From contig OZ034968.1 in the NCBI GenBank assembly GCA_964030785.1, positions 65,387,399-65,451,398 of the forward strand: a DNA stretch of 64,000 bases. The letters run 5' to 3'. A model generated the notes under the pieces. It made no database searches. It saw nothing but the letters and a program-made list of their open reading frames with translations, and was not told the origin of the DNA. How positions within the stretch are numbered: the stretch's first letter is position 1; each line of letters starts with the position of its first letter. The stretch comes from Siderastrea siderea. Its lineage: Eukaryota; Cnidaria; Anthozoa; Scleractinia; Rhizangiidae. The position numbers were made by a program, and so were the translations under genes. Below, in pieces: positions 12,001 to 49,201 of the stretch.

Positions 12001-15000
12001 CTGCTACCCAAGGAAGACAGGATAAGCTAAAGAGCGATGTTAGACATTCTGCTTCCAGTATCTGCTACCCAAGGAAGACAGAATAAGATAAAGAGCGATG
12101 TAAGACATTCCGCTTCCAGGTATCTGCTACCCAAGGAAGACAGAATAAGCTAAAGAGCAATGTAAGACATTCCGCTTCCAGTATCTGCTACCCAAGGAAG
12201 ACAGAATAAGCTAAAGAGCGATGTAAGACATTCCGCTTCCAGGTATCTGCTACCCAAGGAAGACAGAATAAGCTAAAAAGCGATGTAAGACATTCTGCTT
12301 CCAGGTATCTGCTACCCAAGGAAGACAGAATAAGCTAAAGAGCGATGTAAGACATTCTGCTTCCAGTATCTGCTACCCAAGGAAGACAGAATAAGCTAAA
12401 GAGCGATGTAAGACATTCAGCTTCCAGGTATCTGCTACCGAAGGAAGACAGAATAAGCTAAAGAGCGATGTAAGACAATCTGCTACCAGTATCTGCTACC
12501 CAAGGAAGACAGAATAAGCTAAAGAGCGATGTAAGACATTCTGCTTCCAGTATCTGCTACCCAAGGAAGACAGAATAAGCTAAAGAGCGATGTAAGACAT
12601 TCCGCTTCCAGGTATCTGCTACCCAAGGAAGACAGAATAAGCTAAAGAGCGATGAACGACATTCTGCTTCCAGTATCTGCTACCCAAGGAAGACAGAATA
12701 AGCTAAAGAGCGATGTAAGACATTCTGCTTCCAGGTATCTGCTACCCAAAAAAGACAGAATAAGCTAAAGAGCGATGTAAGACATTCTGCTTCCAGTATG
12801 TGCTACCCAAGGAAGACAGAATAAGCTAAAGAGCGATGTAAGACATTCCACTTCCAGGTATCTGCTACCCAAGGAAGACAGAATAAGCTATAGAGCGATG
12901 TAAGACATTTTGCTTCCAGTATCTGCTACCCAGGTAAGACAGAATAAGCTAAAGAGCGATGTAAGACATTCCGCTTCCAGGTATCTGCTACCCAAGGAAG
13001 ACAGAATAAGCTAAAGAGCGATGTAAGACATTCCGCTTCCAGTATCTGCTACCCAAGGAAGACAGAATAAGCTAAAGAGCGATGTAAGAAATTTTGCTTC
13101 CAGTATCTGCTACCCAAGGAAGACAGAATAGGCTAAAGAGCGATGTAAGACATTCTGCTTGCAGTATCTGCTACCCAAGGAAAACAGAATAAGCTAAAGA
13201 GCGATGTAAGACATTCCGCTTCCAGGTATCTGCTACCCAAGGAGGATAGAATAAGCTAAAGAGCGATGTAAGACATTCTGCTTCCAGTATCTGCTACCCA
13301 AGGAAGACAGAATAAGCTAAAGAGCGATGTAAGACATTCTGCTTCCAGTATCTTCTACCCAAGGAAGACAGAATAAGCTAAAGAGCGACGTAAGACATTC
13401 CGCTTCCAGGTATCTGCTACCCAAGGAAGACAGAATAAGCTAAAGAGCGATGTAAGACATTCTGCTTCCAGGTATCTGCTACCCAAGGAAGACAGAATAA
13501 GCTAAAGCGCGATGTTAGGCATTCTGTTTCCAGGTATCTGCTACCCAAGGAAGACAGAATAAGCTAAAGAGCGATGTAAGACATTCTGCTTCCAGGTATC
13601 TGCTACCCAAGGAAGACAGAATAAGCTAAAGAGCGATGTAAGACATTCCGCTTCCAGGTATCTGCTACCCAAGGAAGACAGAATAAGCTAAACAGCGATG
13701 TAAGACATTCTGCTTCCAGGTATCTGCTACCCAAGGATGACAGAATAAGCTAAAGAGCGATGTAAGACATTCTGCTTCCAGTATCTGCTACCCAAGGAAG
13801 ACAGAATAAGCTAAAGAGCGATGTAAGACATTCTGCTTCCAGTATCTGCTACCCAAGGAAGACAGAATAAGCTAAAGAGCGATGTAAGACATTCTGCTTC
13901 CAGGTATCTGCTACCCAAGGAAGACAGAATAAGCTAAAGAGCGATGTAAGACAATCTGCTTCCAGTATCTGCTACCCAAGGAAGACAGAATAAGCTAAAG
14001 AGCGATGTTAGACATTCTGCTTCCAGTATCTGCTACCCAAGGAAGACAGAATAAGCTAAAGAGCGATGTAAGACATTCCGCTTCCAGGTATCTGCTACCC
14101 AAGGAAGACAGAATAAGCTAAAGAGCGATGTAAGACATTCTGCTTCCAGTATCTGCTACCCAAGGAAAACAGAATAAGCTAAAGAGCGATGTAAGACATT
14201 CCGCTTCCAGGTATCTGCTACCCAAGGAAGACAGAATAAGCTAAAGAGCGATGTAAGACATTCTGCTTCTAGGTATCTGCTACCCAAGGAATACAGAATA
14301 AGCTAAAGAGCGATGTAAGACATTCCGCTTCCAGGTATCTGCTACCCAAGGAAGACAGAATAAGCTAAAGAGCGATGTAAGACATTCCGCTTCCAGTATC
14401 TGCTACCCAAGGAAGACAGAATAAGCTAAAGAGCGATGTAAGACATTCCGCTTCCAGGTATCTGCCACCCAAGGAAGACAGAATAAGCTAAAAAGCGATG
14501 TAAGACATTCCGCTTCCAGGTATCTGCTACCCAAGGAAGACAGAATAAGCTAAAAAGCAATGTAAGACATTCTGCTTCCAGGTATCTGCTACCCAAGGAA
14601 GACAGAATAAGCTAAAGAGCGATGTAAGACATTCCACTTCCAGGTATCTGCTACCCAAGGAAGACAGAATAAGCTAAAAAGCGCTGTAAGACATTCTGCT
14701 TCCAGTATCTGCTACCCAAGGAAGACAGAATAAGCTAAAGAGCGATGTAAGACATTCCGCTTCCAGGTATCTGCTACCCAAGGAAGACAGAATAAGCTAA
14801 AAAGCGATGTAAGACATTCCGCTTCCAGTATCTGCTACCCAAGGAAGACAGAATAAGCTAAAGAGCGATGTAAGACATTCTGCTTCCAGTATCTGCTACC
14901 CAAGGAAGACTGAATAAGCTAAAGAGCGATGTTAGACATTCCGCTTCCATGTATCTGCTACCCAAGGAAGACAGAATAAGCTAAAGAGCGATGTAAGACA

Positions 15001-17107
15001 TTCTGCTTCCAGGTATCTGCTACCCAAGGAAGACAGAATAAGCTAAAGAGCGATGTAAGACATTCTTCTTCCAGTATCTGCTACCCAAGGAAGACAGAAT
15101 ACGCTAAAGAGCGATGTAAGACATTCTGCTTCCAGTATCTGCTACCCAAGGAAGACAGAATAAGCTAAAGAGCGATGTAAGACATTCTGCTTCCAGTATC
15201 TGCTACCCAAGGAACACAGAATAAGCTAAAGAGCGATGTAAGACATTCTGCTTCCAGTATCTGCTACCCAAGGAAGACAGAATAAGCTAAAGAGCGATGT
15301 AAGACATTCCGCTTCCAGTATCTGCTACCCAAGGAAGACAGAATAAGCTAAAGAGCGATGTAAGACATTCCGCTTCCAGGTATCTGCTACCCAAGGAAGA
15401 CAGAATAAGCTAAAGAGCGATGTAAGACATTCTGCTTCCAGTATCTGCTACCCAAGGAAGACAGAATAAGCTAAAAAGCGATGTAAGACATTCCGCTTCC
15501 AGGTATCTGCTATCCAAGGAAGACAGAATAAGCTAAAAAGCGATGTAAGACATTCTGCTTCCGGTATCTGCTACCCAAGGAAGACAGAATAAGCTAAAGA
15601 GCGATGGTAGACTTTCTGCTTCCAGTATCTGCTACCCAATTAAGACAGAATAAGCTAAAGAGCGATGTAAGACATTCTGCTTCCAGGTATCTGCTACCCA
15701 AGGAAGACAGAATAAGCTAAAGAGCGATGTAAGACATTCTGCTTCCAGGTATCTGCTAGCCAAGGAAGACAGAATAAGCTAAAGAGCGATGTAAGACATT
15801 CTGCTTCCAGTATCTGCTACCCAAGGAAGACAGAATAAGCTAAAGAGCGATGTTAGACATTCTGCTTCCAGTATCTGCTACCCAAGGAAGACAGAATAAG
15901 CTAAGGAGCGATGTAAGACATTCCGCTTCCAGGTATCTGCTACCCAAGGAAGACAGAATAAGCTAAAGAGCGATGTAAGACATTCTGCTTCCAGGTATCT
16001 GTTACCCAAGGAAGACAGAATAAGCTAAAGAGCGATGTAAGACATTCTGCTTCCAGTATCTGCTACCCAAGGAAGACAGGATAAGCTAAAGAGCGATGTT
16101 AGATATTCTGCTTCCAGTATCTGCTACCCAAGGAAGACAGAATAAGATAAAGAGCGATGTAAGGCATTCCGCTTCCAGGTATCTGCTACCCAAGGAAGAC
16201 AGAATAAGCTAAAGAGCAATGTAAGACATTCCGCTTCCAGTATCTGCTACCCAAGGAAGATAGAATAAGCTAAAGTGCGATGGAAGACATTCCGCTTCCA
16301 GGTATCTGCTACCCAAGGAAGACAGAATAAGCTTAAGAGCGATGTTAGAAATTCCGCTTCCAGTATCTGGTACCCAAGGAAGACAGAATAAGCTTAAAAG
16401 CGATGTAAGACATGCTGCTTCCAGGTATCTGCTACCCAAGGAAGACAGAATAAGCTAAAGAGCGATGTAAGACATTCTGCATCTAGTATCTGCTATCCAA
16501 GGAAGACAGAATAAGCTAAAGAGCGATGTAAGACATTCCGCTTCCAGGTATCTGCTACCCAAGGAAGACAGAATAAGCTAAAAAGCGATGTAAGACATTC
16601 TGCTTCCAGGTATCTGCTACCCAAGGAAGACAGAATAAGCTAAAGAGCGATGTAAGACATTCTGCTTCCAGTATCTGCTACCCAAGGAAGACAGAATAAG
16701 CTAAAGAGCGATGTAAGACATTCTGCTTCCAGTATCTGCTACCCAAGGAAGACAGAATAAGCTAAAGAGCGATGTAAGACATTCTGCTTCCAGGTATCTG
16801 CTACCCAAGGAAGACAGAATAAGCTAAAGAGCGATGTAAGACAATCTGCTTCCAGTATCTGCTACCCAAGGAAGACAGAATAAGCTAAAGAGCGATGTAA
16901 GACATTCTGCTTCCAGATATCTGCTACCCAAGGACGACAGAATAAGCTAAAGAGCGATGTAAGACATTCCGCTTCCAGTATCTTCTACCCAAGGAAGACA
17001 GAATAAGCTAAAGAGCGATGGAAGACATTCTGCTTCCAGGTATCTGCTACCCAAGGAAGACAGAATATTAGCTAAAGTGCGATGTTAGGGATTTTGCTTC
17101 CAGGTAT
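1..17107. repeat. 61/62-bp satellite array (about 278 monomers)
   Basis: A head-to-tail array fills the first 17.1 kb and begins before the window. Each monomer reads roughly from CATTCTGCTTCC through CTACCCAAGG, AGACAGAATAAGC and AGCGATGTAAGA. Monomers are 61 bp, or 62 bp when CCAGTATC is CCAGGTATC. The main variable sites are TTCTGC/TTCCGC, AAAGAGCG/AAAAAGCG and GATGTAAG/GATGTTAG. Rare variants such as GATGAACGAC recur at fixed distances, so blocks of monomers were copied together. The array is broken only by the transposon at 17108-20201. No gene is supported inside it; the short open frames there are translations of the repeat. Confidence 0.98.
17102..17107. repeat. Target-site duplication AGGTAT, left copy
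   Basis: AGGTAT at 17102-17107 is repeated at 20202-20207, on the other side of the inserted element. AGGTAT belongs to the satellite monomer, and the monomer resumes in register after the right copy, so the duplication is genuine. Confidence 0.8.
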
Positions 17108-17690
17108 CAGGGTTGGCCAGGGGGGGTAGTGGTATACCAGTATACCCGAAAAGAATTCGCTAAAATACCCAAAAATACCCCAAATTCCTCCCAATATACC
17201 CAAAATTGATCGAAACGTTGTATACTGTATACCCGAAATTAGTAGTAGCAAAGCAAGCACTTATTTTGTTTAAGTCTTACCTTTAGATAACTCCACCAAC
17301 AAGGAACAAACGTGCATCATTCGTTCTCCATTTAATTGAGAACTGGCAATCAGTCAATCCACACTGGGGCCGGACTGTCATTACTTTCTCACGATGACAG
17401 ATCACACGGTCGCAAGGAATGGTCACATATCAGATTGAAGATGGTTGGCTATGGTTCATGAATTTTAATCCTCATAGTAAGGGTACACTGGTATTTCTTG
17501 AGAGGACCATTGAACCATTGGAAAATGTCAAAAAAGAGGTTGTTGTTGTTGTTCACAGTGAGAGTCTCGATCAATAGACTTTAGCTCCTCTCGAAGCGGA
17601 TAATGGCCGGTCTCGTACCGTGGGCGTGCTCAACAACGGCAGCGGTCTGGGTACGGGCGCGTGGTATCTTTGATTCTTTCAAGCATAGAG

Positions 17691-23659: not shown

Positions 23660-25290
23660 GAGTTTAAAAGCAAAAATTAAATAAATAAGTAAATAAATAA
23701 TTAAACATATATAAATATAAATATGAACACAATAAAATCTAATAAAATGAATATGAATAAAATATTAAAATACAATACAATATAGTATCCTACATGCTAG
23801 AGATAATGGCCTTAAATTCATCTAATGAATCAGGAATTAGAGATAAGTGTACACTTTTCCAAGTTCTTATAGCTCTAGGGTAAAAAGAGTATTTATAAGT
23901 ATCATTCAGTGTGGCAAGTTGGTGAAATGGTGCACAATTAGGACATCTTGAAGCTCTTGTATTGCGAGATATTTCAGGTGGTAGGGAAATACCAACAGGC
24001 CCTTCATAGATCTTGTAAAACATGAACACTTGGTTGTTCAATCTACGGTATTCCAAGGAGTCCCATCCCAGTGCTTTAATCATTGGAGAGACGTGGCTGT
24101 AACGGGAATAATCGTTATAGACAAATCTGGCCGCACGGCGCTGAACCATCTCTATCTTATCAATGTTACGCTGCGTGTGAGGGTTCCATGCACTACTGGC
24201 ATACTCCAGTTTGGGGCGTACAAGTGTAAGATAAGCTGTGTTCTTAACCTCCGGAGTACAACCAGATAAGATTCGTCTAAGAAGATCAAGAGTTGAATTC
24301 GCCTTCTTACAAATAGTGTCACAATGTTCATTCCAGGACAAATTGGTGGCAATAGATATCCCCAGGTAAGTTGCAGAGGAGACACTTGAGATAACCTTAC
24401 CGTCCAAAGCATAGTTAAAGTCGACGGGAATTGTCTTGCGAGTTGTCCGCAGATGATAGCACTTGGCTACATTAAAGGTAAGTTGCCAAGTCTTCGACCA
24501 AAAGGAGAGTTGATGAAGATCTTGCTGGAGAACACGACAGTCCTGCTGGGTAACAATTTCTCTGTATAGTACACAGTCATCCTCAAATAGACGGAGATTT
24601 GATTGAACTGAGCACGAGATGTCATTAATAAATAAAATAAACAAGACCGGTCCCAAAACAGAGCCCTGAGGAACACCAGATACCACAGGTCTCGATGAGG
24701 AAAGAACTCCATTAACTGAGACATTCTGTGTGCGATTGGACAGAAAAGCTTTAATCCAACTGAGTGTTTTACCTCTAATTCCATAAAAATCAAGTTTGGC
24801 AAGTAATCGCTCATGGGGCACAGAGTCAAATGCCTTGGAAAAGTCCAGCAAAATGACATCAGTTTGAGAGATTGTCGATGACTTATGGACACTATTGTTA
24901 ACAGTGGTTCGACAGTGCTTCCAACTTGACTGAGGTTGGGGTGATATCCAAAAATCAATGATTGAGAGATTAATACTCTTCGCCCAATCGTGTATTGCAG
25001 AAATAGGCTGTCTCGCATGCAAGAATATTTCTCTCTGAAACCATGCTGTTGACCAATAAGGATATTATTTGATGAAAGATGTTTAGACATGACTAAGAAT
25101 GATGTGTTCCATTATCTTACAGCAGATGCAGGTTAATGAAATTGGGCGGTAATTTCCTGGATCAGATTTGTTTCCTCTCTTAAAGATTGCTGTAACTTAA
25201 AGGCATTAGACCAGTCTGATGGAACAGTGTTACATTCATATGACTGTTGAAAGATGAAAGAGATCCCTTGTTCATATCCTCCGTTGAAGT
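23660..25290 (-). mobile_element. 5'-truncated non-LTR retrotransposon (LINE, CR1/L2/Jockey-like)
   Basis: A minus-strand LINE fragment without an endonuclease domain. Its recognisable 5' limit is near 25290 (SFIFQQSY...TVPSDW). In an adjacent frame GNKSDPGNYRPISLT follows, the classic start of the LINE reverse transcriptase, then CKIMEHII and QQHGFRE. Its 3' end is an A/T-rich tail at about 23660-23780 after the stop codon. Frameshifts near 25170 and 25015 and a stop after LSHV (about 25090) show it is dead. It lies inside the TTAA-flanked element, so it inserted later. Confidence 0.88.
23790..25022 (-). pseudogene. LINE reverse transcriptase core, degraded
   Basis: This 410-residue open frame holds the catalytic part of a LINE reverse transcriptase. 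Motif A is DVILLDFSKAFD (residues 55-66), the GVPQGSVLGP motif is at 116-125, and the catalytic box reads FEDD (146-149) where FADD or YADD is normal. The C-terminal region (RRAARFV, AIRTWKSV) is typical of CR1/L2-type elements. Just before motif A the protein has about 33 foreign residues, encoded by an insertion bounded by 10-bp direct repeats (24864-24873, 24962-24971). With the missing 5' part, the altered catalytic box and upstream frameshifts, it should be inactive. Confidence 0.9.
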
Positions 25291-27118: not shown

Positions 27119-28454
27119 CACAGGCAGCCCAAGCTAACGTTGAGAGCTACGCATAAATTAGACTGTTTTTTCCACACTATGCATAATAATGACATCGGCA
27201 CGCTATGCATAATAATGACAATGGCAACATTTAAGAGTTTGTATGGAAATGATACAAATCGTCTCAAATTGCCACAAATCAAAAAGAAGTCGGGATAAAA
27301 AGGATTTGCCTTATTTCATTGTTGTATTGGTCATTATTTGAGGGCTTCCTGGGCTGGTTTGAAGCTTTTTGGGTGAGAAATTGAGGTTTATATTTTTCAT
27401 GTTTACTGAACGTTTATAATTAATTAAAGGCAGGCAACAGTATCACACTGCAGCTTACTTGAGTTTCGATAAATTTCATCACAATAAACGAATCGCCCTA
27501 AAACTTCAAAGGTGTGTATTCTTGGGTCTTGCGCATACCGCTGTTTTTTGTCATGGGTTCCAGATCCTATTTTAAGCCATGGAAAATCCCTCTTAAATAC
27601 GAAACTCGCCTTTCCTGGCATGCGTTTTCATTTGAAGTGCACACATGAATCATTGCGAGCCGCGATTCGACGACAAAATTGTCCTCAGCCGGGGAGAGGC
27701 TGAGTGAGATTGTCGACAAACAAACACGACACTGGGGAGTCCAGAGAGGTTGGTTTGACGGAAATAGAGAAATATTAGAACGGCCGTGAAATTCACTCGC
27801 CCCACTTGACTTGGAAAACCATAATTTTGTTTTAGGGACGAACGAAGATCCATCTTTTGCTGCACTTTAATCAATCCATTCGATGATTTTACGCCGAGTA
27901 TTTGGCCCAAGTGATCCTACTCACTGCCCGCAAATCAACCTCATTATTTAATTCCGATATATAGGGTTGTCTTGCCCTAAAAAAATATTCCTGTGACCGT
28001 GGAAAATACCCACCACAATTTCCATTCCTTTGAAAACCGGTGCAATTTTTTTCTAAGTGGAAAGTGCTCCTCGTCTCTGCTTTGCGGTAAACAGGTAAAT
28101 GTGACAAAGCAAATCACTATGCTAATATATTGTCGCACAAAGACATTAAAGCGTGCTCGTGGCGTCAAGTGAGGGGACTAAATTTCACGGGCGTGCTAAT
28201 AGTTTTCTATTTCGGTCAAACCGAGCTCTCTGGACTCTGCAGTGTCGTGTTTGTTTGTCGACAATCTCACTCAGCCTCTCCCCGGCTGAGGACAATTTTG
28301 TCGTCGAATCGCGGCTCGCAATGATTCATGTGTGCACTTCAAATGAAAACGCATGCCAGGAAAGGCGAGTTTCGTATTTAAGAGGGATTTTCCATGGCTT
28401 AAAATAGGATCTGGAACCCATGACAAAAAACAGCGGTAGCTTGGGCTGCCTGTG
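27119..28454. mobile_element. Fold-back TIR element with ~290-bp arms and 7-bp target duplication
   Basis: The ends CACAGGCAGCCCAAGCTA (27119-27136) and its complement (to 28454) are flanked by GTGTGAC at 27112-27118 and 28455-28461. The right arm runs about 28165-28454. The left arm is 27119-27136 continued at 27538-27805, over 90% similar by eye, and is split by a 399-bp insert. Without the insert the element is about 0.94 kb. Open frames in the arms mirror each other and are not genes. Element type is uncertain; 7-bp duplications are unusual. Confidence 0.78.
27137..27535. mobile_element. TA-flanked insert within the left arm of the fold-back element
   Basis: Comparing the two arms of the surrounding element shows this 399-bp segment only in the left arm, bounded by TA at 27135-27136 and 27536-27537. 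A TA duplication is the Tc1/mariner signature, but no clear inverted ends are visible. It contains a short tandem repeat of CTATGCATAATAATGACA near 27178-27220. Confidence 0.6.
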
Positions 28455-28733
28455 GTGTGACGAACTGTTTGCGAATGCAAATTTGTGATCTCTTTTCATT
28501 GGAGGACTTCCACAAAAGGCGCTCAGGACAAAAATCTCCCGTGTATGGGAGGTGTATTTGACAAATTACCTGTGAAATTTGCAAAGTCGCACGAGAAGTG
28601 TGCAAACTCACTTGACAGCGAACAGTGTGGTACCTTTCGCTTCGCTTATTGCGTGTTAGGTGCAAATAATCAAGGACACTTATTCTCGCTCAAAACGCTT
28701 CAAATCATCCCAAAAGGCCATTAAATGGCAATA

Positions 28734-28892
28734 GCCCTTTTCACGGTTACCTTTTCTCATTTGCATTACAATGACTTTGAACGTGGATGTGAGGCAATTT
28801 CGGGCAATTTTGCACTATTTGCCCGAAATTGCCTCACATTCACGTTCAATTATATTGTAATGTAAATGAGAAAAGTGAACTGTGAAAAGGGC
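28734..28892. mobile_element. 159-bp palindromic MITE with TA duplication
   Basis: The ends GCCCTTTTCAC and GTGAAAAGGGC are flanked by TA at 28732-28733 and 28893-28894. The two halves are near-complementary across almost the full length and meet at GGGCAATTTTGC. This fits a Tc1/mariner-type MITE. Confidence 0.8.
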
Positions 28893-29017
28893 TATTAATA
28901 CAACACAGAAACAAGGTGAACCATTTGTTATTGTGAATTATTTCGCATTTATGGCAATTAAAGCGCCGTATTTGTTGCATTTTTCCTACAAACTCTTATA
29001 TTTTGCCGAGGTCATAA

Positions 29018-29023
29018 TATACG
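29018..29023. repeat. Target-site duplication TATACG, left copy
   Basis: TATACG at 29018-29023 recurs at 30576-30581 immediately outside the right end of the CUT-homeobox element. Confidence 0.75.
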
Positions 29024-29250
29024 CCAGGCATAACTAATCGATGACATCAATGAAATCGATGACTAATCAATAGGTAATCGATTGGTAATCAGTTGATTAG
29101 TCATTGATTATTGCCGATGATCAATGAGTAATCGATGACTAATCGATAGGCCACAAAAATTTTGGTCATCGATTAGTCATCGATTGCATCGATTAGTCAT
29201 TGATTACATTGATTAGTCATTGATTTCATTCATTACTCATCGATATCATT
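29024..29250. promoter_or_regulatory. Left ATCGAT/ATCAAT array (candidate CUT-homeodomain sites)
   Basis: By hand count about 9 ATCGAT and 7 ATCAAT/ATTGAT hexamers occur in roughly 220 bp. ATCGAT-type sites are the known preference of Cux proteins and ATCAAT-type of Onecut/HNF6 proteins. Binding here is inferred, not shown. Confidence 0.55.
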
Positions 29251-29375
29251 TCGTGGCTGAAAACCGTATTTGGCGAATAAGAACAAAATAAAAACAACTT
29301 ATTAAATGTAAACAGATGTTTCCAGCTTTATTTTATCCAGCTTACAATTAAGCTTACAATTAAGCTTACAATGTG

Positions 29376-29614
29376 TTAAGCGTCAGAAGGCCTATTTTCA
29401 TTTGTATTTTGTTCCCCCGTATCTCGTTGTCTTTTATTATTGAACCAAACCTTGACGGTTGCCCCGTCAAGGTTGTTCAACTTAGCAAATTCTTCTATTA
29501 CTCCTTAAGACAGGTATCTGCTTTCTTTAAACAGGGCCTCAAGGGCCATTTTTTGCAGATGGGAAAATTTGGTTCTTGTATTTGTAGTTGATGAAGCCAC
29601 TCGTTTCCTTTTCC
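29376..29614 (-). pseudogene. Homeodomain exon, disrupted by one stop codon
   Basis: After a good acceptor (TTTGCTTACAG, ending at 29615) this exon reads KRKRVASSTTNTRTKFSHLQ and continues to WFNNKRQRD and a TAA at 29376-29378. Aligned to homeodomain numbering it has R5, F8, L16, F20, Y25, A35, L40, V45, W48, F49, N51 and R53, all at the right spacing. Residue 50 is Asn. Position 28 is a TAA stop (29505-29507), so the recognition helix could not be made. The CUT exon lies about 210 bp upstream in the same orientation, the order found in CUT-class homeobox genes (Onecut, Cux, SATB). Whether it came from a host gene or belongs to the element family is open. Confidence 0.85.
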
Positions 29615-29822
29615 CTGTAAGCAAAAACAAAATAAAACTAGATAAGTTTAGTTGAACATGTATTTATTTATTTATATGCGAAGCGAAGAGGACTGATGAA
29701 TAAACATCTCATAAAAAACATTTCCAGGAACGACGTAATTGAATAATGACGGTCGGGCATATGGATTGTGCAACGGAAGTAGTTCTTGCGAATTGATTAA
29801 ATTACACGTATTCATAAGTGAT

Positions 29823-30115
29823 TCATGTATCTTTGATCCTTCCTCTCAGATCTGCTATGGGATCTTCTTGCTTTAGCCAGTTCTTTATCCTTCGGTAGGG
29901 CTCTCTTCCCTCCTCCGGCAATTGTTCAAACGTCTTAGGTTTGTTGAGAATTTCCGATCCTCTACCCTGGGATCTTTCCAACACGTGGACAGTAAACTGC
30001 GCGATAGGAATTTTGTTTACTCGCAAAAGGCGCAGTGCTTCTTGGCTAAGTTCTGCTGTGTCTAAAACAGAGCCAGGCGATGCGCTTAAATTGCTCTGCC
30101 CGCCGTTTGGGGAAT
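29823..30115 (-). pseudogene. CUT-domain exon of a CUT-homeobox gene
   Basis: The exon starts after an acceptor (TTTCTTACAG, ending 30116) and encodes a single complete CUT domain, a DNA-binding domain. Key matches to the family are LDTAELSQEAL, NKIPIAQF, VLERSQG, LNKPKTFEQL and GREPYRRIKNWL, i.e. the conserved L-[DN]-T, the VL-x-RSQG core, the PK and the GRE-x-[FY]-RR block. The frame stays open until a TGA after GRIKDT. No GT donor is seen before that stop, so splicing to the homeodomain exon (29376-29614) looks lost. A possible first exon lies upstream. In an intact protein CUT plus homeodomain would give bipartite recognition of ATCGAT/ATCAAT. Confidence 0.87.
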
Positions 30116-30174
30116 CTGTAAGAAAGTAGAAGAATGAATACATAGTGTTTGCACTGAAATATGCATGCATAAAT

Positions 30175-30318
30175 TCATTTTCCTGGATTCACTGAGATTC
30201 GCAATAGTTCAACATTGAGTATTGAGGGTTTCTTAACAGTGTTTTGTGCTTGAACTGAACTGATGTCAGAAGTGAGAGTTCCTCCATGCTTCACAAGGAA
30301 TTCTTCGAGCTTCGGCAT
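30175..30318 (-). pseudogene. Possible first exon of the CUT-homeobox gene
   Basis: A 47-codon open frame starts MPKLEEFLVKHGGTLTSD, upstream of the CUT exon and inside the element, and ends at a TGA. Its start is just inside the right ATCGAT array, so the array could serve as promoter-proximal sequence. No donor in the phase needed by the CUT exon was found, so its inclusion is tentative. Confidence 0.35.
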
Positions 30319-30334
30319 CTTATTCCTTGGAATA

Positions 30335-30575
30335 GTCGATGAGTAATCGATGAGTCATCGATGAGTAATCAATAACATCAATAGGTAATCAATTATATCA
30401 ATGAGTAATCGATGTCATCGATGAGTAATCGATAGGCCACAAAATTTTTGGGCTTCGATTAGTCATCGATTACTCATTGATCATCGCCAATAATCAATGA
30501 CTAATCAACTGATTACCCATCGATTACTCATTGATTACCAATTGATGTCATTGATCATCGATTAGTTATGCCTGG
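30335..30575. promoter_or_regulatory. Right ATCGAT/ATCAAT array, inverted copy of the left
   Basis: By hand count about 8 ATCGAT and 9 ATCAAT/ATTGAT hexamers. It is the inverted counterpart of the left array. Both arms carry a central AGGCCACAAAA/TTTTGG block that is itself nearly palindromic. Confidence 0.55.
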
Positions 30576-30581
30576 TATACG

Positions 30582-40776: not shown

Positions 40777-41345
40777 CTGCTGGAACAGATCACCCATAAT
40801 GACTGCTTATAACCAATTTTAAAAGCCACAAATCCGGAGCAGTCGTATGTAATTTAAGACATGTTCGTGTTTCAAGCCTTCCAATTGTTTTTAAATGTTT
40901 CCATTTTTCCTGGGTAAATTAGAATAATTACATCACTGAAATACCTAAAACACTTTAAAAATACTGTGTGTGTAATCAAGCGAGATTGGTCATAGTTCAA
41001 ACACAAAGAACAAATTTATATTTAAAATAAAGCTTATAATGATATGTATACTGTCAGCTTCGAAATTCAAAATTAATACCATTGAATTACACGATTGTAA
41101 ATTGATTCATCAAGAGAAATACAAAATTGCTTGAGTTATCGGGAGCTAAATTGCTGTAAATTTGGTATGGCCAATGGAAAACTGCTATTGGTTCGAGTTA
41201 GCCTGTATTTGAGTTATCGATATTTTTCTGTACATTTCCAGGTGTATTTAAATGAAGCAAAGAAGTATATATTTCAAACGAGAAAAAAATCGGTTAAACG
41301 GTTGACGCAATCTTCTTAATTTTCCATACTTGGAACAGTTATTTG

Positions 41346-41560
41346 AACCCTTTCACTCCCAGAATCAGTAGTGGAGACAGTAAGGTGATTCTACCTTTTG
41401 AGACTGTGGATGAAATCCTGTGGTGTGACCATTCAAATGAAACCTCTTCAGTTGTACTTTCACCTGGTACTATTTATATTTATTATAAGTATTTTACTGA
41501 AATGACATTTGGGATTCGTCTTGTATTTTGATTGTAGGCACTCTTGGGAGTGAAAGGGTT
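41346..41560. mobile_element. MITE with AACCCTTTCACTCCCA ends (copy A)
   Basis: The ends AACCCTTTCACTCCCA and TGGGAGTGAAAGGGTT are inverted with one offset base. The copy in unit B (45116-45294) is 36 bp shorter because of an internal deletion. Confidence 0.75.
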
Positions 41561-43073
41561 AAAAAGGCTCAGTTATTCAATAGTCACCAACCAATGGATG
41601 TTTTTCATGATCGCCTTAGTACTGCGACCCTGACGAGGGTTTTATCAGTCTGTTTCGCTACTTTGGGCGACATTCATGGCTCTGATAGGGCATGTCTAGC
41701 CACTGAAATTTGTCGATAACGGCATCATACTCATAGTGAAAACAGAATAATAACCGTGCACGCTAAAAAGACTAACCCGAACTGGCGCTGAAACATTGCA
41801 ATGATTATTGTCAAATGGCAAAAATATACTATATCCTCTTTCCTGCAAGTTTTCGTTTTTTGTGAGAACCGGAATTCAGGTGCCAGATGATATAACTTCT
41901 TCAAGAACCATGAATAAATATTAATTCCTTTACTTTGCCTTATATTTTACGCCACTGTCAAAAGTCGAACTTAAAATAAAGGGCTACGAAATCTTACCTT
42001 ACTTCACACTACGAAATGAAATCGGGGTTGGGGGGAGACAAAATTGGCAGACTGACTAGTTACAATTACATGTACTGTATTCTAGCTTATAGCTCGGTGA
42101 CAGCAACTATGTAATGCGCAATTTATTTGAGCACATTTTCGCTATTCATCACAAAAGAAATACGTATATATAAATATTATTATATTAGCTTTGGACGGAA
42201 ACTCCACTCGCGTTGGACGCCCCTTTCTGGAGTTCTCTCTCCTTCAAAAACATTTTTCTGTAGATTGTTGTTTTCTAAATGCTTGACAACAAGAAAAATA
42301 TTTTAGCTAAGTGGCCTTGACACTGAACTTGTACAATATTGTCGCAATTCTCGATACTTGCTGAATGCAAGTTCGTCGATTCTGTGCGGAACGAAAGCAA
42401 AGATCTCAAGCTTTCAGGATCAAGCTGCATTCATTAAAAAACGTAAAATGGAAAATATCCCTTAAAAATCCAAAGATGGATCAAAGGAAGCAGAACCTGC
42501 AAAGGTCTGCCTCTAATGCAAAAGGAAATTAAGCAATTACTACTCAAAAATTTTCATTTGAAAAATTTGGCTGCACCATGATGGTCAGAAAATGGCACAT
42601 TTGGCTTGAAATTGGCTTTTTTAGTGGAAATGTTGTAGAAAAAGGGTTGGAAGTATTAATAGCATCATATCGTGAGTTCCGCGTGCAAGGGCTTAACATA
42701 ATTATTCCCAATACCTTTTAACTAACGGAAAACTACTCGCAGTGCTTGTTAATTTGTTCAGAAGAAATTTGCCACTCTTGTCATATGCCCAACAACAGCG
42801 CCATAACAGAGAGCAATATATGAGATGACAATAAATATATAGAGGACATCCTCACTAGTGAGGATAAGGAAAATACGCCACTCGAGTCCTGGATGTAGTT
42901 TCGTATGAACATTACGAATATACGCCACTCTAGTCCCGGGTGTAGTTTCGTATATGGACGTTACGAGTGGTCTATATTCCACTAAGTCACTCTTGTCTAT
43001 ATAATAAATGAATATACATACACGACTTTGCGGAGTATTTGAACTCACAAAATGACCGCTCGCAACACATGAG

Positions 43074-43148
43074 GCCTTGGTAGCTCAGTTGGTTTAAAGC
43101 ATCTCACTAGCAGCGTGAAGGCCACAAGTTCAAATCCCGTCCAAAACA
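43074..43148 (+). tRNA. tRNA-Ala(AGC)-like pseudogene, copy A
   Basis: A 75-nt cloverleaf fit with standard loop sizes: acceptor GCCTTGG/CCAAAAC (5 of 7 pairs), A box TAGCTCAGTTGG, anticodon loop CTAGCAG giving AGC with T33, variable AGGCC, T loop TTCAAAT. The D, anticodon and T stems each carry mismatches, several of the C-to-T or G-to-A kind, so it is a decayed gene or SINE head. Confidence 0.6.
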
Positions 43149-45115
43149 TAGAACTTTTTTTAGGCTTAATCGCAATTTCTATAATTGCGTGCATCAGTGC
43201 GAGGGTCATTTTCTTAATTTGAGAGAGCAACATCTTAAAAGCATGAGGTTCAAAGTCCTATATACTTTACTGCGAAATTGACACTATTTTTTTTTAGTAT
43301 ACCAAACCGATGGACAACGAGTCTCTCGCGCTCTGATTGGCTACTCAAACTCGGGATAGTATCTGCTAGTCTCCTCCCGGCATTTTTCTGGATTTCGCGC
43401 GTTCAATACCTGAGTATTAATGTTTGTTCTTTTGCATTTGGGGCAAATAAAAAAAATTGATAAATCAGAAGAGCACGAATCCACATGAATTAATTACGGT
43501 CACGTAAAACAAAACAAAAAAAAATCAAGGGAAAAAAACACATTTTGGAATTTTTTTTCCGCAGCCAAAATACAGATTATTAGGCTACTGAACTCCAGCT
43601 AATGTTTTCACCCGTTTAAATTCGTCTTATGTCTCCTTGAGGTACTGATCACACTATTTTTTAACGAAACACTCACCTGAATAGAAAATGGACGTGAAGA
43701 AAAGTCACCTTCCCTCGGAGTTGCGATCGTTCTAAAAACACCATAAAAATTAACTCGATTTTCTGATTTTGACTTGTTTTTCAGAAGTTAGAACGGCACT
43801 GATCTAAAGCAGCAAATAAATACCGTGCATTCTTCATTAACAGCAACTAACAGAATTACGAAATAAAAACTCACCTGACACGAAAGATGTCCAGTATTCC
43901 TTTACCAAATGAATATTCCCTTAAATAAACAGAAGGACTGACTTAAGCGAAAGTTTTGTACGTCAACTAACTCTCTTAGAGTTAACCTCAAGAAAGAAAA
44001 GGCAACATTAACTTGAAGAATCTCAATTTCAACGTCATCTTTCGTAATGGACCCACCCCTTAGCAGATTAATCATTTAGAATCTTTCAAGACTCCTTCAA
44101 GCAGGCAATATAAATACATGTATGAGCAGCTTTCCATTCGGATAATGGCATGGAACCTGTGAGTAAATTTGGCGGCGTAGAGCCTTTCCAGTTTGAAGAT
44201 TCAGACTACAAAAAGCTAAGAGCGGGGCCTGTGAACAAGCTTCTTAGCCGTGAGGAAAAGGGTGCAAGAAAAATCGGCAAGCAGAGCAAGCGGACGAGGC
44301 GCACTATGTGCCCTATTGCTCACTAAAAAAACCCGAGTGTTCACAGAGAAACACGAGCATGATTCTGTGGACGAATTACCTTGGAGCTCAGAAAAATAGT
44401 GTGCAAACTGGTACTAATACCAGCAAAATAACGTCATCATGAAAATGGCTATTCAGCGCCCTAATACAAGGTCTCTACCTTGTCTATGCATGAAGATGCC
44501 AGAAAGTGTCTCGAAAAACTTGCTGACAATTCCTTCCTGTTCTGTTCTGCTGGAACAGATCACCCATAATGACTGCTTATAACCAATTTTAAAAGCCACA
44601 AATCCGGAGCAGTCGTATGTAATTTAAGACATGTTCGTGTTTCAAGCCTTCCAATTGTTTTTAAATATTTCCATTTTTCCTGGGTAAATTAGAATAATTA
44701 CATCACTGAAATACATAAAACACTTTAAAAATACTGTGTGTGTAATCAAGCGAGATTGGTCATAGTTCAAACACAAAGAACAAATTTTTATTTAAAATAA
44801 AGCTTATAATGATATATATACTGTCAGCTTCGAAATTCAAAATTAATACCATTGAATTACACGATTGTAAATTGATTCATCAAGAGAAATACAAAATTGC
44901 TTGAGTTATCGGGAGCTAAATTGCTGTAAATTTGGTATGGCCAATGGAAAACTGCTATTGGTTCGAGTTAGCCTGTATTTGAGTTATCGATATTTTTCTG
45001 TATATTTCCAGGTGTATTTAAATGAAGCAAAGAAGTATATATTTCAAACGAGAAAAAAATCGGTTAAACGATTGACGCAATCTTCTTAATTTTCCATACT
45101 TGGAACAGTTATTTG

Positions 45116-45294
45116 AACCCTTTCACTCCCAGAATCAGTAGTGGAGACAGTAAGGTGATTCTATCTTTTGAGACTGTGGATGAAATCCTGTGGTGTGACC
45201 ATTCAAATGAAACCTCTTCAGTTGTACTTTCACCTGGTACTATTTAGATTCGTCTTGTGTTTTGATTGTAGGCTCTCTTGGGAGTGAAAGGGTT
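45116..45294. mobile_element. MITE with AACCCTTTCACTCCCA ends (copy B, deleted form)
   Basis: Same element as in copy A; the internal segment after CTATTTA is missing, so the deletion postdates the duplication or copy A regained an older allele. Confidence 0.72.
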
Positions 45295-46839
45295 GAAAAG
45301 GCTCAGTTATTCAATAGTCACCAACCAACGGATGTTTTTCATGATCGCCTTAGTGCTGCGACCCTGACGAGGGTTTTTTCAGTCTGTTTTGCTACTTTGG
45401 GCGACATCGTGGCTCTGATAGGGCATGTCTAGCCACTGAAATTTGTCGATAACGGCATCATACTCATAGTGAAAACGGAATAATAACCGTGCACGCTAAA
45501 AAGACTAACCCGAACTGGCGCTGAAACATCGCAATGATTATTGTCAAATGGCAAAAAAATACTATATCCTCTTTCCTGCAAGTTTTCGTTTTTTGTGAGA
45601 ACCAGAATTCAGGTGCCAGATGATATAGCTTCGTCAAGAACCATGAATAAATATTAATTCCTTTACTTTGCCTTATATTTTACGCCACTGTCATAAGTCG
45701 AACTTAAAATAAACGGCTACGAAATCTTACCTTACTTCACACTACGAAATGAAATCGGGGTTGGGGGGGAGACGAAATTGGCAGACTGACTAGTTACAAT
45801 TACATGTACTGTATTATAGCTTTTAGCTCGGTGACAGCAACTATGTAATGCGCAATTTATTTGAGCACATTTTCGCTACTCATCACAAAAGAAATACGTA
45901 TATATAAATATTATTATATTAGCTTTGAACAGAAACTCCACTCGCGTTGGATGCCCCTTTTTGGAGTTCTCTCTCATTCAAAAACATTTTTCTGTAGATT
46001 GTTGTTTTCTAAATGCTTAACAACAAGAAAAATATTTTAGCTAAGTGGCCTTGACACTGAAAATATTACAAAACTACAGATATGTTTGTACAATATTGTC
46101 GCAATTCTCGATACTTGCTCAATGCAAGTTCGTCGATTCTGTTCGGAACGAAAGCAAAGATCTCAAACTTTCAGTATCAAGCCGCATTCATTAAAAAACG
46201 TAAAATGGAAAATATCCCTTATAAATCCAAATGATGGATCAAAGGAAGCAGAAAATAAAACGTACAAAGGTCTGCCTCTAATGCAAAAGGAAATTAAGCA
46301 ATTACTACTCAAAACTTTACATTGAAAAATTTGGCTGCACCATGATGGTCAGAAAATGGCATATTTGGCTTCAAATTGGCTTTTTTAGTGGAAATGTTGC
46401 CGAAAAAGGGTTGGAAGTATTAGTAGCAGCATCATATCGTGAGTTCCGCCTGCAAGGGCTTAACATAATTATTCCCAATACCTTTAACTAACGGAAAACT
46501 ACTCGCAGTGCTTGTTAATTTGTTCAGAAGAAATTTGCCGCTCTTGCCACATGCCCAACAACAGCGCCATAACAGAGAGCAATCTATGAGATGACAATAA
46601 ATATATAGAGGACATCCTCACTAGTGAGGATAAGGAAAATACACCACTCGAGTCCTGGATGTAGTTTCGTATGAACATTACGAATATACGCCACTCGAGT
46701 CCCGGGTGTAGTTTCGTATATGGACGTTACGAGTGGTCTATATTCCACTAAGCCACTCGTGTCTATATAATAAATGAATATACATACATGACTTTGCGGA
46801 GTATTTGAACTCACAAAATGACCGCTCGCAACACATGAG

Positions 46840-46914
46840 GCCTTGGTAGCTCAGTTGGTTTAAAGCATCTCACTAGCAGCGTGAAGGCCACAAGTTCAAA
46901 TCCCGTCCAAAACA
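46840..46914 (+). tRNA. tRNA-Ala(AGC)-like pseudogene, copy B
   Basis: Identical in sequence to the copy-A tRNA-like segment, with the same stem mismatches, so it decayed before the segmental duplication. Confidence 0.6.
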
Positions 46915-48490
46915 TAGAACTTTTTTTAGGCTTAATCGCAATTTCTATAATTGCGTGCATCAGTGCGAGGGTCATTTTCTTAATTTGAGAGAGCGACATC
47001 CTAAAAACATGAGGTTCAAAGCCCTATATACTTTACTGCGAAATTGACACTATTTTTTTTAGTATACCAAACCGATGGACAACGAGTCTCTCGCGCTCTG
47101 ATTGGCTACTCAAACTCGGGATAGTATCTGCTAGTCTCCTCCCGGCATTTTTCTGGATTTCGCGCGTTCAATACCTGAGTATTAATGTTTGTTCTTTTGC
47201 ATTTGGGGCAAATAAAAAAAATTGATAAATCAGAAGAGCACGAATCCACATGAATTAATTACGGTCACGTAAAACAAAACAAAAAAAACTCAAGGAAAAA
47301 AAAAACATTTTGGAATTTTTTTCCGCAGCCAAAATACAGATTATTAGGCTACTGAACTCCAGCTAATGTTTTCACCCGTTTAAATTCGTCTTATGTCTCC
47401 TTGAGGTACTGATCACACTATTTTTTAACGAAACACTCACCTGAGCAGAAAATGGACGTGAAGAAAAGTCACCTTCCTGCGGAGCTGCGATCGTTCTAAA
47501 AACACCATAAAAATTAACTCGATTTTCTGATTTTGACTTGTTTTTCAGAAGTTAGAATGGCACTGATCTAAAGAAATACTTGGACTTCACTTGGCAGCAA
47601 ATAAATACCGTGCATTCTTCATTAACAGCAACTAACAGAATTACGAAATAAAAACTCACCTGACACGAAAGATGTCCAGTATTGCTTTACTAAATGAATA
47701 TTCCCTTAAATAAACAGAAGGACTGACTTAAGCGAAAGTTTTGTACGTCAACTAACTCTCTTAGAGTTAATCTCAAGAAAGAAAAGGCAACATTAACTCG
47801 AAGAATCTCAATTTCAACGTCATCTTTCGTAATGGACCCACCCCTTAGCAGATTAATCATTTAGAATCTTTCAAGACTCCTTCAAGCAGGCAATATAAAT
47901 ACATGTATGAGACAGCTTTCCATTCGGATACTGGCATGGACCCTGTGAGTAATATAAATTTGGCGGCGTAGAGCCTTTCCAGTTTGAAGATTCAGACTAC
48001 AAAAAGCTAAGAGCGGGGCCTGTGAACAAGCTTCTTAGCCGTCAGGAAAAGGGTGCGAGAAAAATCGGCAAGCAGAGCAAGCGCGCGAGGCGCACTATGT
48101 GCCCTATTGCTCACTAAAAATACCCCAGTGTTCACAGAGAAACACGAGCACGATTCTGTGGACGAATTACCTTGGAGCTCAGAAAAATAGTGTGCAAGCT
48201 GGTACTAATACCAGCAAAATAACGTCATCATGAAAATGGCTATTCAGCGCCCTAATACAAGGTCTCTACCTTGTCTATGCATGAAGATGCCAGAAAGTGT
48301 CTCGAAAAACTTGCTGACAATTCCTTCCTTTCTTTTCGCAACTGCATAAATTGCGTTAATAACTGCGAGGATCTTCTTTACATTTATTTCTTCATTCCGC
48401 AGTTCAAATATATGAATTTCATATATTCATAATTTCATCTTCATCTTTCCCGGGTATATTACGAACCAATTTAATGACCAGCTCCCAGTT

Positions 48491-48562
48491 GGCTTGTTAG
48501 CTCAATTGGTTAGAGCGCTGCACCGGTATCGCAGAGTTCAGGGTTCGAATCCCGGCAAGCCT
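48491..48562 (+). tRNA. tRNA-like gene, unit 1 (anticodon position reads GGT)
   Basis: Acceptor GGCTTGT/GCAAGCC, A box TAGCTCAATTGG, B box GGTTCGAATCC, anticodon loop CCGGTAT. This copy differs from the others by a mismatch in the anticodon stem (CTGCA/CGCAG) and AGTTC in the variable loop. A T6 terminator follows. GGT would be Thr, but base 33 is C instead of T and the T arm is one nucleotide short. Confidence 0.6.
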
Positions 48563-48704
48563 GATTTTTTCAGGCTTCAGTTCTTTTCGCAACTGCATAA
48601 GTTGCGTTATATATTGCGTGAATATATGAATTTCATATATTCATAATTTCATCTTCATCTTTCCCGGGTATATTACGAACCAATTTAATGACCAGCTCCC
48701 AGTT

Positions 48705-48776
48705 GGCTTGTTAGCTCAATTGGTTAGAGCGCTGCACCGGTATTGCAGAGGTCAGGGTTCGAATCCCGGCAAGCCT
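48705..48776 (+). tRNA. tRNA-like gene, unit 2 (anticodon position reads GGT)
   Basis: Perfect 5-bp anticodon stem CTGCA/TGCAG around CCGGTAT, intact A and B boxes, and a T6 terminator. Sequence identical to units 3 and 4 over the 72 nt. Same C33 and short T arm as unit 1. Confidence 0.65.
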
Positions 48777-48951
48777 GATTTTTTCAGGCTTTCTTTTCGC
48801 AACTGCATAAGTTGAGTTAATAACTGCGAGGATCTTCTTTACATTTATTTCTTTATTCCGCAGCTCAAATATATGAATTTCATATATTCATAATTTCATC
48901 TTCATCTTTCCCGGGTATATATCGAACCAATTTAATGACCAGCTCCCAGTT

Positions 48952-49023
48952 GGCTTGTTAGCTCAATTGGTTAGAGCGCTGCACCGGTATTGCAGAGGTC
49001 AGGGTTCGAATCCCGGCAAGCCT
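48952..49023 (+). tRNA. tRNA-like gene, unit 3 (anticodon position reads GGT)
   Basis: Identical to unit 2 over the tRNA body, with the same internal promoter boxes and T6 terminator. Identity among units 2-4 points to recent amplification or conversion. Confidence 0.65.
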
Positions 49024-49201
49024 GATTTTTTCAGGCTTTCTTTTCGCAACAACTGCATAAGTTGCGTTAATAACTGCGAGGATCTTCTTTACATTTATTT
49101 CTTCATTCCGCAGTTCAAATATATGAATTTCATATATTCATAATTTCATCTTCATCTTTCCCGGGTATATTACGAACCAATTTAATGACCAGCTCCCAGT
49201 T

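What the first reader, a model, noticed from the sequence alone, without database searches (positions are those of the whole stretch)
29024..30575. A transposon that carries a CUT-homeobox gene and whose own ends are arrays of CUT-homeodomain-type sites
Seen: 20-bp identical inverted termini, TATACG duplication, ~230-bp TIRs with about 33 ATCGAT/ATCAAT hexamers in total, and between them a complete CUT domain and a homeodomain with canonical residues R5, F8, W48, F49, N51, R53. Known: Cux proteins prefer ATCGAT-type and Onecut proteins ATCAAT-type sites. Inferred: the encoded protein once bound the element's ends, either as the DNA-binding part of its transposition machinery or as a captured host regulator that lets the element use host CUT-factor sites. 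I know of no described DNA transposon family with a CUT-homeodomain protein. This copy is dead (stop in the homeodomain).
Basis: partly seen in the sequence, partly recalled or inferred. Interest (0 to 1): 0.93.

Follow-up and report, generated by a model that had tools for sequence, protein, structure and literature searches.

The report
Coral transposon carrying CUT-homeobox gene
In a coral-like genome, a family of small mobile DNA elements carries a gene for an animal-type DNA-binding protein (a CUT domain plus a homeodomain), and the elements' own ends are long arrays of the short sequence that this kind of protein is expected to bind.

Summary
Window 29024-30575 is a TIR transposon with a 6-bp duplication, 33 ATCGAT/ATCAAT hexamers in its two ends, and a minus-strand gene for about 201 aa: one CUT domain plus one homeodomain. 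This copy is dead. It is not a one-off: its genome holds 178 exact copies of the 20-bp end and 21 CUT-bearing copies, each beside a family end. All 25 complete elements examined have 6-bp duplications. Database ORFs show a second subfamily with TIR and homeobox joined. Between subfamilies the homeodomain reading frame is conserved and the other two frames are not, so the protein was under selection. Between the two arms of this copy, 2 of 106 site columns differ against 23 of 118 spacer columns. Best reading: the element's own protein binds its TIRs, one of which is also its promoter. Binding is inferred, not shown. Limits: no transposase was found; recent copies evolve nearly neutrally; copies without the gene keep the arrays; some carry a different HeH/SAP-like ORF. 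It is not a recent copy of the host's Onecut-type gene. Eight searches of the held papers listed no such element; Repbase could not be searched.

The parts
29024..30575 (-). Whole element, 1552 bp, non-autonomous TIR DNA transposon; strand given is that of its gene
   Evidence: flanked by TATACG on both sides; sister copies of 1525-1566 bp with their own 6-bp duplications
29018..29023 (.). Left target-site duplication TATACG
   Evidence: exact 6-bp duplications in 25 of 25 complete elements (window; 15; 4; L067; L019, L020, L022, L023)
30576..30581 (.). Right target-site duplication TATACG
29024..29252 (+). Left TIR (3' side of the gene): 16 CUT-type hexamers, mostly at 9- or 11-bp spacing
30336..30575 (-). 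Right TIR (5' side of the gene): 17 CUT-type hexamers, ends about 18 bp before the ATG; probably promoter and 5' leader
30237..30318 (-). Exon 1, MPKLEEFLVKHGG..., phase-1 end; donor here CTG|TTAAGA, GT in phase only in L052 of 7 copies compared
29831..30115 (-). Exon 2, CUT domain; its donor reads AT in the window copy and GT in the 6 other copies aligned
29376..29614 (-). Exon 3, homeodomain, with an in-frame stop at homeodomain position 28 in this copy
29327..29332 (-). AATAAA, probable poly(A) signal

Best explanation
A non-autonomous member of a coral DNA-transposon family (CCAG...CTGG ends, 6-bp duplications, TIRs of about 230-245 bp) that carries its own regulator, a protein of about 201 aa made of one CUT domain and one homeodomain. 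Shown: gene and TIRs recur together; gene structure; past selection on the homeodomain; fewer differences between the arms of this copy at the CUT-type sites than in the spacers. Inferred: the protein binds the TAATC(G/A)ATGA-like arrays in both TIRs, lying along the DNA at about one site per helical turn. Because the right TIR ends about 18 bp before the start codon it would regulate its own gene, and by coating both ends it would mark or pair them for a transposase supplied in trans by a partner not found here. This works like a two-protein transposon (DNA-binding protein plus separate transposase), with an animal CUT-homeodomain as the DNA-binding part. Once free in the cell the protein serves every TIR, so copies without the gene can keep moving.
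For: Recurrence: of 141 protein clusters from two database searches (one of which selected on the TIR), 117 contain the translated 5' TIR, and 54 of these 117 also contain homeodomain sequence in some frame; P0048 runs TIR, homeodomain, other TIR. In the own genome: 178 exact ends, control 0; 25 CUT matches, which are 21 element copies and 2 Onecut-type loci; 21 of the 21 copies and 0 of the 2 Onecut-type loci have a family end within the locus held. Selection: homeodomain, window against the other subfamily, 0.82-0.90 identical in the coding frame (P0017, 18, 20-24, 26, 28), but 0.45-0.63 and 0.54-0.64 in the two other frames (P0038, 39, 61, 69, 96; P0041, 48, 55, 57, 58, 109, 133). Left out as belonging to the window's own subfamily: P0098 (0.96), P0030, 83, 97, 101, 102 (0.74-1.00). 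All coding-frame rows with 30 or more residues: 21, mean 0.829, range 0.68-0.91. 0 of 2000 neutral simulations gave 0.84 or more in the coding frame with 0.63/0.64 or less in another, at each of 9 divergences. Sites: left against right arm, 2 of 106 site columns differ, 23 of 118 spacer columns, Fisher 1.2e-5, 0 of 223 circular shifts as low, similar under 4 alignment scorings. All 33 hexamers are ATCRAT on one strand, none ATTAAT, whereas ATTAAT is 33 of 87 such hexamers elsewhere in the non-satellite window. The recognition helix is nearly invariant in 11 aligned ORFs. Of 7 copies compared, 3 keep the whole 201-codon frame open.
Against: No binding data. Recent copies in this genome look nearly neutral: in 18 copies, private changes in the homeodomain 17 nonsynonymous to 8 synonymous (neutral ratio 3.05), shared 10 to 4; in 15 copies, CUT private 15 to 8, shared 6 to 0 (neutral 2.85). 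Arrays persist in copies lacking the gene. In translated TIRs of 113 database ORFs, site codons are no better conserved than others (0.860, or 0.899 with permitted site variants, against 0.869). Same-side TIRs of different copies show the same direction only weakly: R_WIN/R_L053 p = 0.026, five more pairs not significant; left against right arm of two other copies p = 0.012. The first donor lacks an in-phase GT in 6 of 7 copies, so correct splicing of the present copies is doubtful. Other members carry an HeH/SAP-like ORF instead, so the family also carries other cargo. No transposase found.
Confidence: 0.55

Rival explanations
1. Passenger capture: a TIR transposon family that picks up host gene pieces took a CUT-homeobox gene long ago; the protein has nothing to do with transposition and the ATCGAT arrays serve only the unseen transposase.
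For: Members with other cargo: an HeH/SAP-like ORF of about 190 aa in L063 and shorter frames of it in L065, a 2.2-kb member with neither gene (L045). Recent copies near neutral. Arrays present with and without the gene.
Against: L044 and database ORFs of the other subfamily show the HeH region and CUT/HD in the same order, so both probably belonged to one older parent. The homeodomain frame was selected between subfamilies that share TIR and leader. A capture unrelated to the ends would not predict that the ends consist of CUT-type sites.
Confidence: 0.27
2. Host hijack: the arrays recruit the host's own Onecut/Cux-type proteins to switch on or protect the element; the encoded protein is a relic or a competitor.
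For: Two host Onecut-type CUT loci exist in this genome; the site class is the one recalled for Onecut/Cux.
Against: Past selection on the element's own homeodomain; its own protein is the nearest candidate binder.
Confidence: 0.12
3. Chance or assembly artefact: a CUT-homeobox pseudogene that happens to lie between AT-rich repeats.
For: None found.
Against: 21 of 21 CUT-bearing copies lie beside a family end, and every complete element examined has an exact 6-bp duplication.
Confidence: 0.01
4. The family is the small-derivative tail of a large self-replicating, virus-like transposon (Polinton/Maverick type, 6-bp duplications), whose enzymes mobilise it.
For: 6-bp duplications in 25 of 25 complete elements; 6 bp is the length given for Polinton (passages of PMC10045372). 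One family TIR (L066) lies 4.2 kb from a packaging-ATPase ORF, Pox_A32 E 1.2e-10.
Against: That ATPase is very common here (6006 first-look candidates, best 150 scored and listed), so nearness in one place is no surprise. None of the 83 listed ATPase places on contigs C1-C5 is within 136 kb of the 100 listed family ends there; this saw 83 of 6006 candidates. No partner end with the L066 duplication was found at up to 2 mismatches.
Confidence: 0.05

Closest known systems
CUT-class homeobox proteins with one CUT domain (ONECUT: HNF6/Onecut2)
   Same: One CUT followed by one homeodomain; best whole-length match among solved structures (HNF6 2d5v, E 2e-10); SQG..S..L motif
   Different: About 38% identical in CUT; homeodomain has W48/N50 where HNF6 has F48/M50 (alignment); own clade (99/98 and 100/99), weakly nearer CUX2 (81/78) than host or human Onecut, on a long branch
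CUX proteins (CUX2 CUT repeats)
   Same: CUT alone matches CUX2 slightly better than HNF6 (3.1e-8 against 4.4e-7); TAATCGAT-type sites recalled for CUX
   Different: One CUT instead of three; no CUX homeodomain H50 (both CUX features recalled)
PIF/Harbinger (Nuwa) transposons with a separate Myb/SANT DNA-binding protein (passages of PMC12730594)
   Same: Element-encoded DNA-binding protein separate from the transposase
   Different: Different DNA-binding fold, 3-bp duplications, and there the transposase is present
En/Spm TnpA and its subterminal motif arrays (recalled, no call)
   Same: Small element-encoded protein, arrays of its short site in both ends, promoter inside one end
   Different: TnpA is not a CUT-homeodomain; En/Spm has 3-bp duplications and CACTA ends; binding there is proven
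DNA transposons carrying TET/JBP genes in fungi (abstract start and passages of PMC12730594)
   Same: Transposon families carrying a non-transposase gene that may help them
   Different: Enzyme against methylation, not a binder of the element's ends
Acropora CMITE elements (abstract and outline of PMC2872659)
   Same: Non-autonomous coral TIR elements
   Different: piggyBac-related, MITEs described as small and non-coding; here 6-bp duplications and a homeobox gene

Membership tests
CUT-class homeobox gene | CUT domain | tested here: met
   PF02376 E 9.6e-20, 70.8 bits against a cut-off of 24.4
CUT-class homeobox gene | Homeodomain C-terminal to CUT | tested here: met
   PF00046 E 3.1e-15; order
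ONECUT subclass | Groups with Onecut in a tree and has F48/M50 | tested here: not met
   Own clade; W48/N50 by translation; the F48/M50 definition is recalled, HNF6 letters seen
CUX subclass | Three CUT repeats | tested here: not met
   One CUT in a 201-codon gene; rule recalled
TIR (cut-and-paste type) DNA transposon | Inverted ends with fixed-length duplications at different sites | tested here: met
   25 of 25 complete elements, exact 6 bp; the 21 printed ones all differ
hAT superfamily (6-bp hAT6) | hAT transposase encoded by a family member | tested here: inconclusive
   The only hAT transposase seen lies in a nested 3014-bp insertion with its own ends and a 5-bp duplication; most members of the genome were not read
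hAT superfamily (6-bp hAT6) | 6-bp duplications | tested here: met
   hAT6 named in PMC12730594, passages
IS3EU | TA..TA termini | tested here: not met
   Termini CCAG..CTGG; rule from PMC10045372, passages
piggyBac/CMITE | TTAA duplications | tested here: not met
   21 printed duplications, all different 6-mers; TTAA rule recalled
Dada | No TIRs, insertion in small RNA genes | tested here: not met
   Long TIRs and varied duplications; rule from PMC3706591, passages
Polinton/Maverick | Integrase, PolB, packaging ATPase between the same TIRs | tested here: inconclusive
   One ATPase ORF 4.2 kb from a family TIR, but ATPase is very common and no partner end was found; integrase and PolB not looked for

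The most novel reading that the evidence does not exclude
An animal DNA-transposon lineage adopted (or supplied) a CUT-homeodomain transcription factor as the dedicated binder of its own ends, so that protein and TIR arrays evolved together: a selfish regulatory circuit made of a developmental-type transcription factor and its own site arrays, spread widely through a coral genome, each insertion scattering ready-made CUT-factor site clusters.
Probability: 0.45. Interest if true: 0.9.

Novelty: new variant of a known kind. Interest (0 to 1): 0.8.

Why it matters
Transposases are thought to have become transcription factors (Pax from Tc1-like transposases, passages of PMC4901127). Here the flow appears reversed: an animal-type homeobox protein in the service of a transposon. 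If binding is confirmed, each insertion of the family (178 exact ends; about 350 first-look candidates for each TIR, of which 40 were scored) adds a dense cluster of CUT-homeodomain sites that host CUT factors could also read, a direct and testable route from transposons to new regulatory DNA. It also warns that 'one cut domain family member 3-like' gene models in corals (P0001) can be transposon genes.

Tried and rejected
hAT autonomous partner: the 5159-bp copy L042 has 99%-identical TIRs and a hAT transposase ORF (Dimer_Tnp_hAT E 1.3e-5), but comparison with L045 shows the transposase in a 3014-bp nested insertion with other ends (CAGTGCTCGACACTAAC) and a 5-bp duplication CCATA. Rejected.

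Reverse-transcriptase ORFs in L044: a nested insertion with 137-nt inverted repeats, Penelope-like by eye (recalled; the 269-aa ORF has no Pfam match). Rejected as transposase.

Idea that ATCAAT sites are just decayed ATCGAT (CpG loss): only 1 of 25 arm differences is a CpG transition and CpG observed/expected is 1.5 in the TIRs. Not supported.

Fusion of CUT-homeodomain with a transposase: a search of proteins of about 296-943 aa gave 823 candidates, none with E <= 0.001. Weak, because only proteins sharing exact 5-residue words are candidates.

Viral contigs and genome contigs: no relatives.

Structure of the CUT exon: pLDDT 62.6, no Foldseek match with E <= 0.001; uninformative.

One search stopped with a script error and was replaced. 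One search had a residue mask off by one after residue 19; one search repeats it correctly and finds no extra conservation. In one search the label TIR3 is confounded with TIR5 and is not used. In one search the CUT frame was wrong; one search gives the right one. In one search the row L_L063 is really a right TIR, and the two comparisons with it are not used.

Polinton idea: see rivals.
Full report
What is in the window. Bases 29024-30575 form a 1552-bp element with 21 identical bases at both ends (CCAGGCATAACTAATCGATGA), TATACG on both sides, and long imperfect inverted arms. The arms hold 16 and 17 hexamers of the kinds ATCGAT, ATCAAT and ATTGAT. The 1069 bp between them hold 1, and the 45.2 kb of non-satellite window outside the element hold 54. 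Shuffles give a mean of 2.4 per arm and a maximum of 8 in 2000. The majority letters around the sites, each read in the orientation that suits best, are TAATC(G/A)ATGA; counted strictly, 20 of 33 sites are TAATC(G/A)AT and 10 of 33 TAATC(G/A)ATGA. Successive sites lie 11 bp apart (15 of 31 steps) or 9 bp apart (8 of 31), about one helical turn.

The gene. On the minus strand a three-exon gene fits exactly 606 nt: exon 1 30318-30237, exon 2 30115-29831 (CUT, PF02376, E 9.6e-20), exon 3 29614-29376 (homeodomain, PF00046, E 3.1e-15), with AATAAA at 29332-29327. The right TIR ends about 18 bp before the ATG. In this copy the homeodomain has a stop codon and the second donor has lost its GT; the 6 other copies aligned keep it. 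The first donor is CTG|TTAAGA in 6 of 7 copies and has GT in phase only in L052, so splicing of present-day copies is uncertain. Three of the seven copies keep the whole 201-codon frame open.

It is a family. A protein search found 37 clusters related to the CUT-homeodomain; the one whose name gives an organism is 'one cut domain family member 3-like [Montipora foliosa]', a stony coral of the family Acroporidae. Many homeodomain ORFs begin inside the translated TIR. A second search with residues 1-100 of P0021, which are TIR and leader, gave 116 clusters. Over the 141 clusters of both searches, 117 contain the 5' TIR peptide (the second search selected for it) and 54 of these also contain homeodomain sequence in some frame. 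P0048 shows TIR, homeodomain and the other TIR in one ORF. P0056, P0073, P0074, P0081, P0086 and P0088 run from TIR to TIR with no homeodomain match by a simple letter pattern. Ten ORFs that start in flanking DNA enter the element at the same terminus, two of them with the same flank.

The own genome (830.9 Mb, 402 contigs, unnamed) was reached late, because the tool was busy. The exact 20-bp end occurs 178 times, its reversed control 0 times. The left TIR search had 351 first-look candidates and the right TIR search 356; only the best 40 of each were scored, at 94-100% and 98-100% identity over the main matches. The CUT exon gave 25 matches: 23 belong to 21 element copies (two copies are split in two), and 2 are Onecut-type loci on contig C4 at 42 and 38% identity. 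All 21 copies have a family end within the 3-kb locus held, the 2 Onecut-type loci have none. Of 20 loci fetched, 15 had both ends in the stretch, and all 15 have exact, different 6-bp duplications. The 4, L067, the window, and L019, L020, L022 and L023 make 25 of 25. Homeodomain sequence was found in 18 of the 20 loci and CUT sequence in 14; the loci had been chosen by TIR or CUT matches, so these are not unbiased rates. Among the first 100 listed ends, 39 inward-facing pairs lie 548-7710 bp apart. In the fetched examples, the three of 953-954 bp carry homeodomain only; those of 1461-1566 bp carry CUT plus homeodomain except L065 (1523 bp), which has neither; the two of 1296/1297 bp have neither.

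Other cargo. The two 1296/1297-bp copies (L063, L064) and L062 and L065 carry no CUT or homeodomain match. On the opposite strand L063 has an open frame of 190 aa with an HeH/SAP-like DNA-binding motif (PF12949, E 4.5e-08), and HeH matches occur in L062, L064 and L065 too. The same region lies before CUT/HD in L044 and, in the same order, in database ORFs (P0013 and P0019 before CUT, P0035 before homeodomain). So an older parent probably had, in order, right TIR, leader, HeH gene on one strand, CUT-homeodomain gene on the other, left TIR, and the classes seen now are mostly deletion products. This order is inferred from pieces; no complete parent was seen.

Was the protein selected? The window's homeodomain is compared with the YKDSK subfamily of the database. 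In the coding frame the full-length ORFs P0017, P0018, P0020-P0024, P0026 and P0028 are 82-90% identical. The same stretch read in the two other frames, from other ORFs of that subfamily, is 45-63% (5 ORFs) and 54-64% (7 ORFs) identical. Rows of the window's own subfamily were left out (P0098; P0030, P0083, P0097, P0101, P0102, at 74-100%); over all 21 coding-frame rows with 30 or more residues the mean is 0.829, range 0.68-0.91. Neutral simulation at nine divergences never gave 0.84 or more against 0.63/0.64 or less in 2000 runs each. The three frames come from different copies, which is a weakness. So the subfamilies diverged under selection on the protein. Against this, recent copies in this genome look almost neutral: homeodomain (18 copies) private changes 17 nonsynonymous to 8 synonymous where 3.05 to 1 is neutral, shared 10 to 4; CUT (15 copies) private 15 to 8, shared 6 to 0, neutral 2.85. 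That is what one expects if one or few active copies serve many passive ones in trans, and also what one expects of plain cargo.

Were the sites selected? Between the window's two arms, 2 of 106 columns inside sites differ but 23 of 118 outside (Fisher 1.2e-5; none of 223 circular shifts as low; p from 2.6e-4 to 1.9e-6 under four alignment scorings). The type of site (CG, CA or TG centre) agrees in 14 of the 15 aligned left-arm sites. All 33 centres obey ATCRAT, while ATTAAT, 33 of 87 such hexamers elsewhere in the non-satellite window, is absent. Two cautions. The arms are repeat arrays, so alignment can favour matched sites. And other tests are weak or null: same-side TIRs of different copies go the same way but only one of six pairs is significant (p = 0.026), left against right arm of two other copies gives p = 0.012, and codons over sites in 113 translated database TIRs are no better conserved than others.

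How it most likely works. The element-encoded CUT-homeodomain protein binds the arrays in both ends. That would control its own promoter, which probably lies in the right TIR, and prepare the ends for a transposase made elsewhere. Shown: the anatomy, recurrence, past selection on the protein, and fewer differences at sites than in spacers in one copy. Inferred: binding, autoregulation, help in transposition. That Cux and Onecut proteins prefer ATCGAT and ATCAAT is recalled; my one search for a paper on it found none.

What moves it is unknown. The 6-bp duplications and CCAG..CTGG ends speak against piggyBac (TTAA, recalled), IS3EU (TA..TA) and Dada (no TIRs). A hAT transposase inside L042 belongs to a nested insertion. 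One family TIR lies near a packaging ATPase (L066), but that gene has 6006 first-look candidates in this genome, none of 83 listed places on C1-C5 is near a listed family end, and no partner end was found.

What it is related to. The CUT domain forms its own clade (99/98; 100/99), weakly nearer CUX2 (81/78) than Onecut, with a long branch and a warning from the program that long branches may meet falsely; the host's Onecut-type loci are not a recent parent. The homeodomain is unlike both Onecut and Cux at position 50 (N; Cux H50 recalled). P0025, 67% identical to the window in CUT, is a more distant relative with unknown surroundings.

Novelty. Searches of the held open-access library listed no transposon with a CUT-homeodomain protein: (one search listed 20 of 32 papers; two searches returned none). 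Of their hits I read passages of PMC4901127, PMC7642931, PMC2836005 and PMC3706591 and the abstract of PMC2872659; the rest I saw as listings. Repbase and subscription journals were not searched, so a database entry without a paper may exist. I rate it a new variant of a known kind (transposon with a separate DNA-binding protein), with an unusual protein class.

Noticed in passing
window 1-17108: Satellite array, 61-bp unit, about 278 copies at 94% match, with strong AT skew.
   Followed up: no
L042 (G000:C4:14400281-14405439): Nested 3014-bp hAT element with 5-bp duplication CCATA, 17-bp ends CAGTGCTCGACACTAAC, and a 599-aa ORF (Dimer_Tnp_hAT) plus a 218-aa ORF (zf-C17orf113).
   Followed up: partly
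L063, L064, L065, L044, L066: HeH/SAP-like ORF (318-aa open frame in L066) carried by the same TIR family; weaker relatives (27-42%) in open frames of up to 1286 aa elsewhere in the genome.
   Followed up: partly
L066 4678-5316: Pox_A32-type packaging ATPase ORF; relatives very common in this genome (6006 first-look candidates, 150 scored), suggesting many Polinton-like copies.
   Followed up: partly
window 48407-49364: Tandem repeat of about 250 bp, each unit with a tRNA-Thr gene (four genes).
   Followed up: no
window 40777-44463 and 44547-48254: Tandem duplication of a block of about 3.77 kb, 93-99% identical in most parts, each with a tRNA-Ala-like gene.
   Followed up: no
window 27536-27810 and 28164-28438: Another inverted pair, 275 bp, 95% complementary, 353 bp apart, close to the studied element.
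   Followed up: no
window 28730-28896: Near-perfect hairpin (78-bp arms, 88%, 11-bp loop), perhaps a MITE.
   Followed up: no
window 23790-25064 minus: LINE-type reverse transcriptase ORF, 424 aa open; identified by eye only.
   Followed up: no
P0134 (protein database, contig 14 kb): TIR-like ORF that seems to run into the homeodomain in antisense, perhaps a third, more divergent subfamily; read by eye.
   Followed up: no
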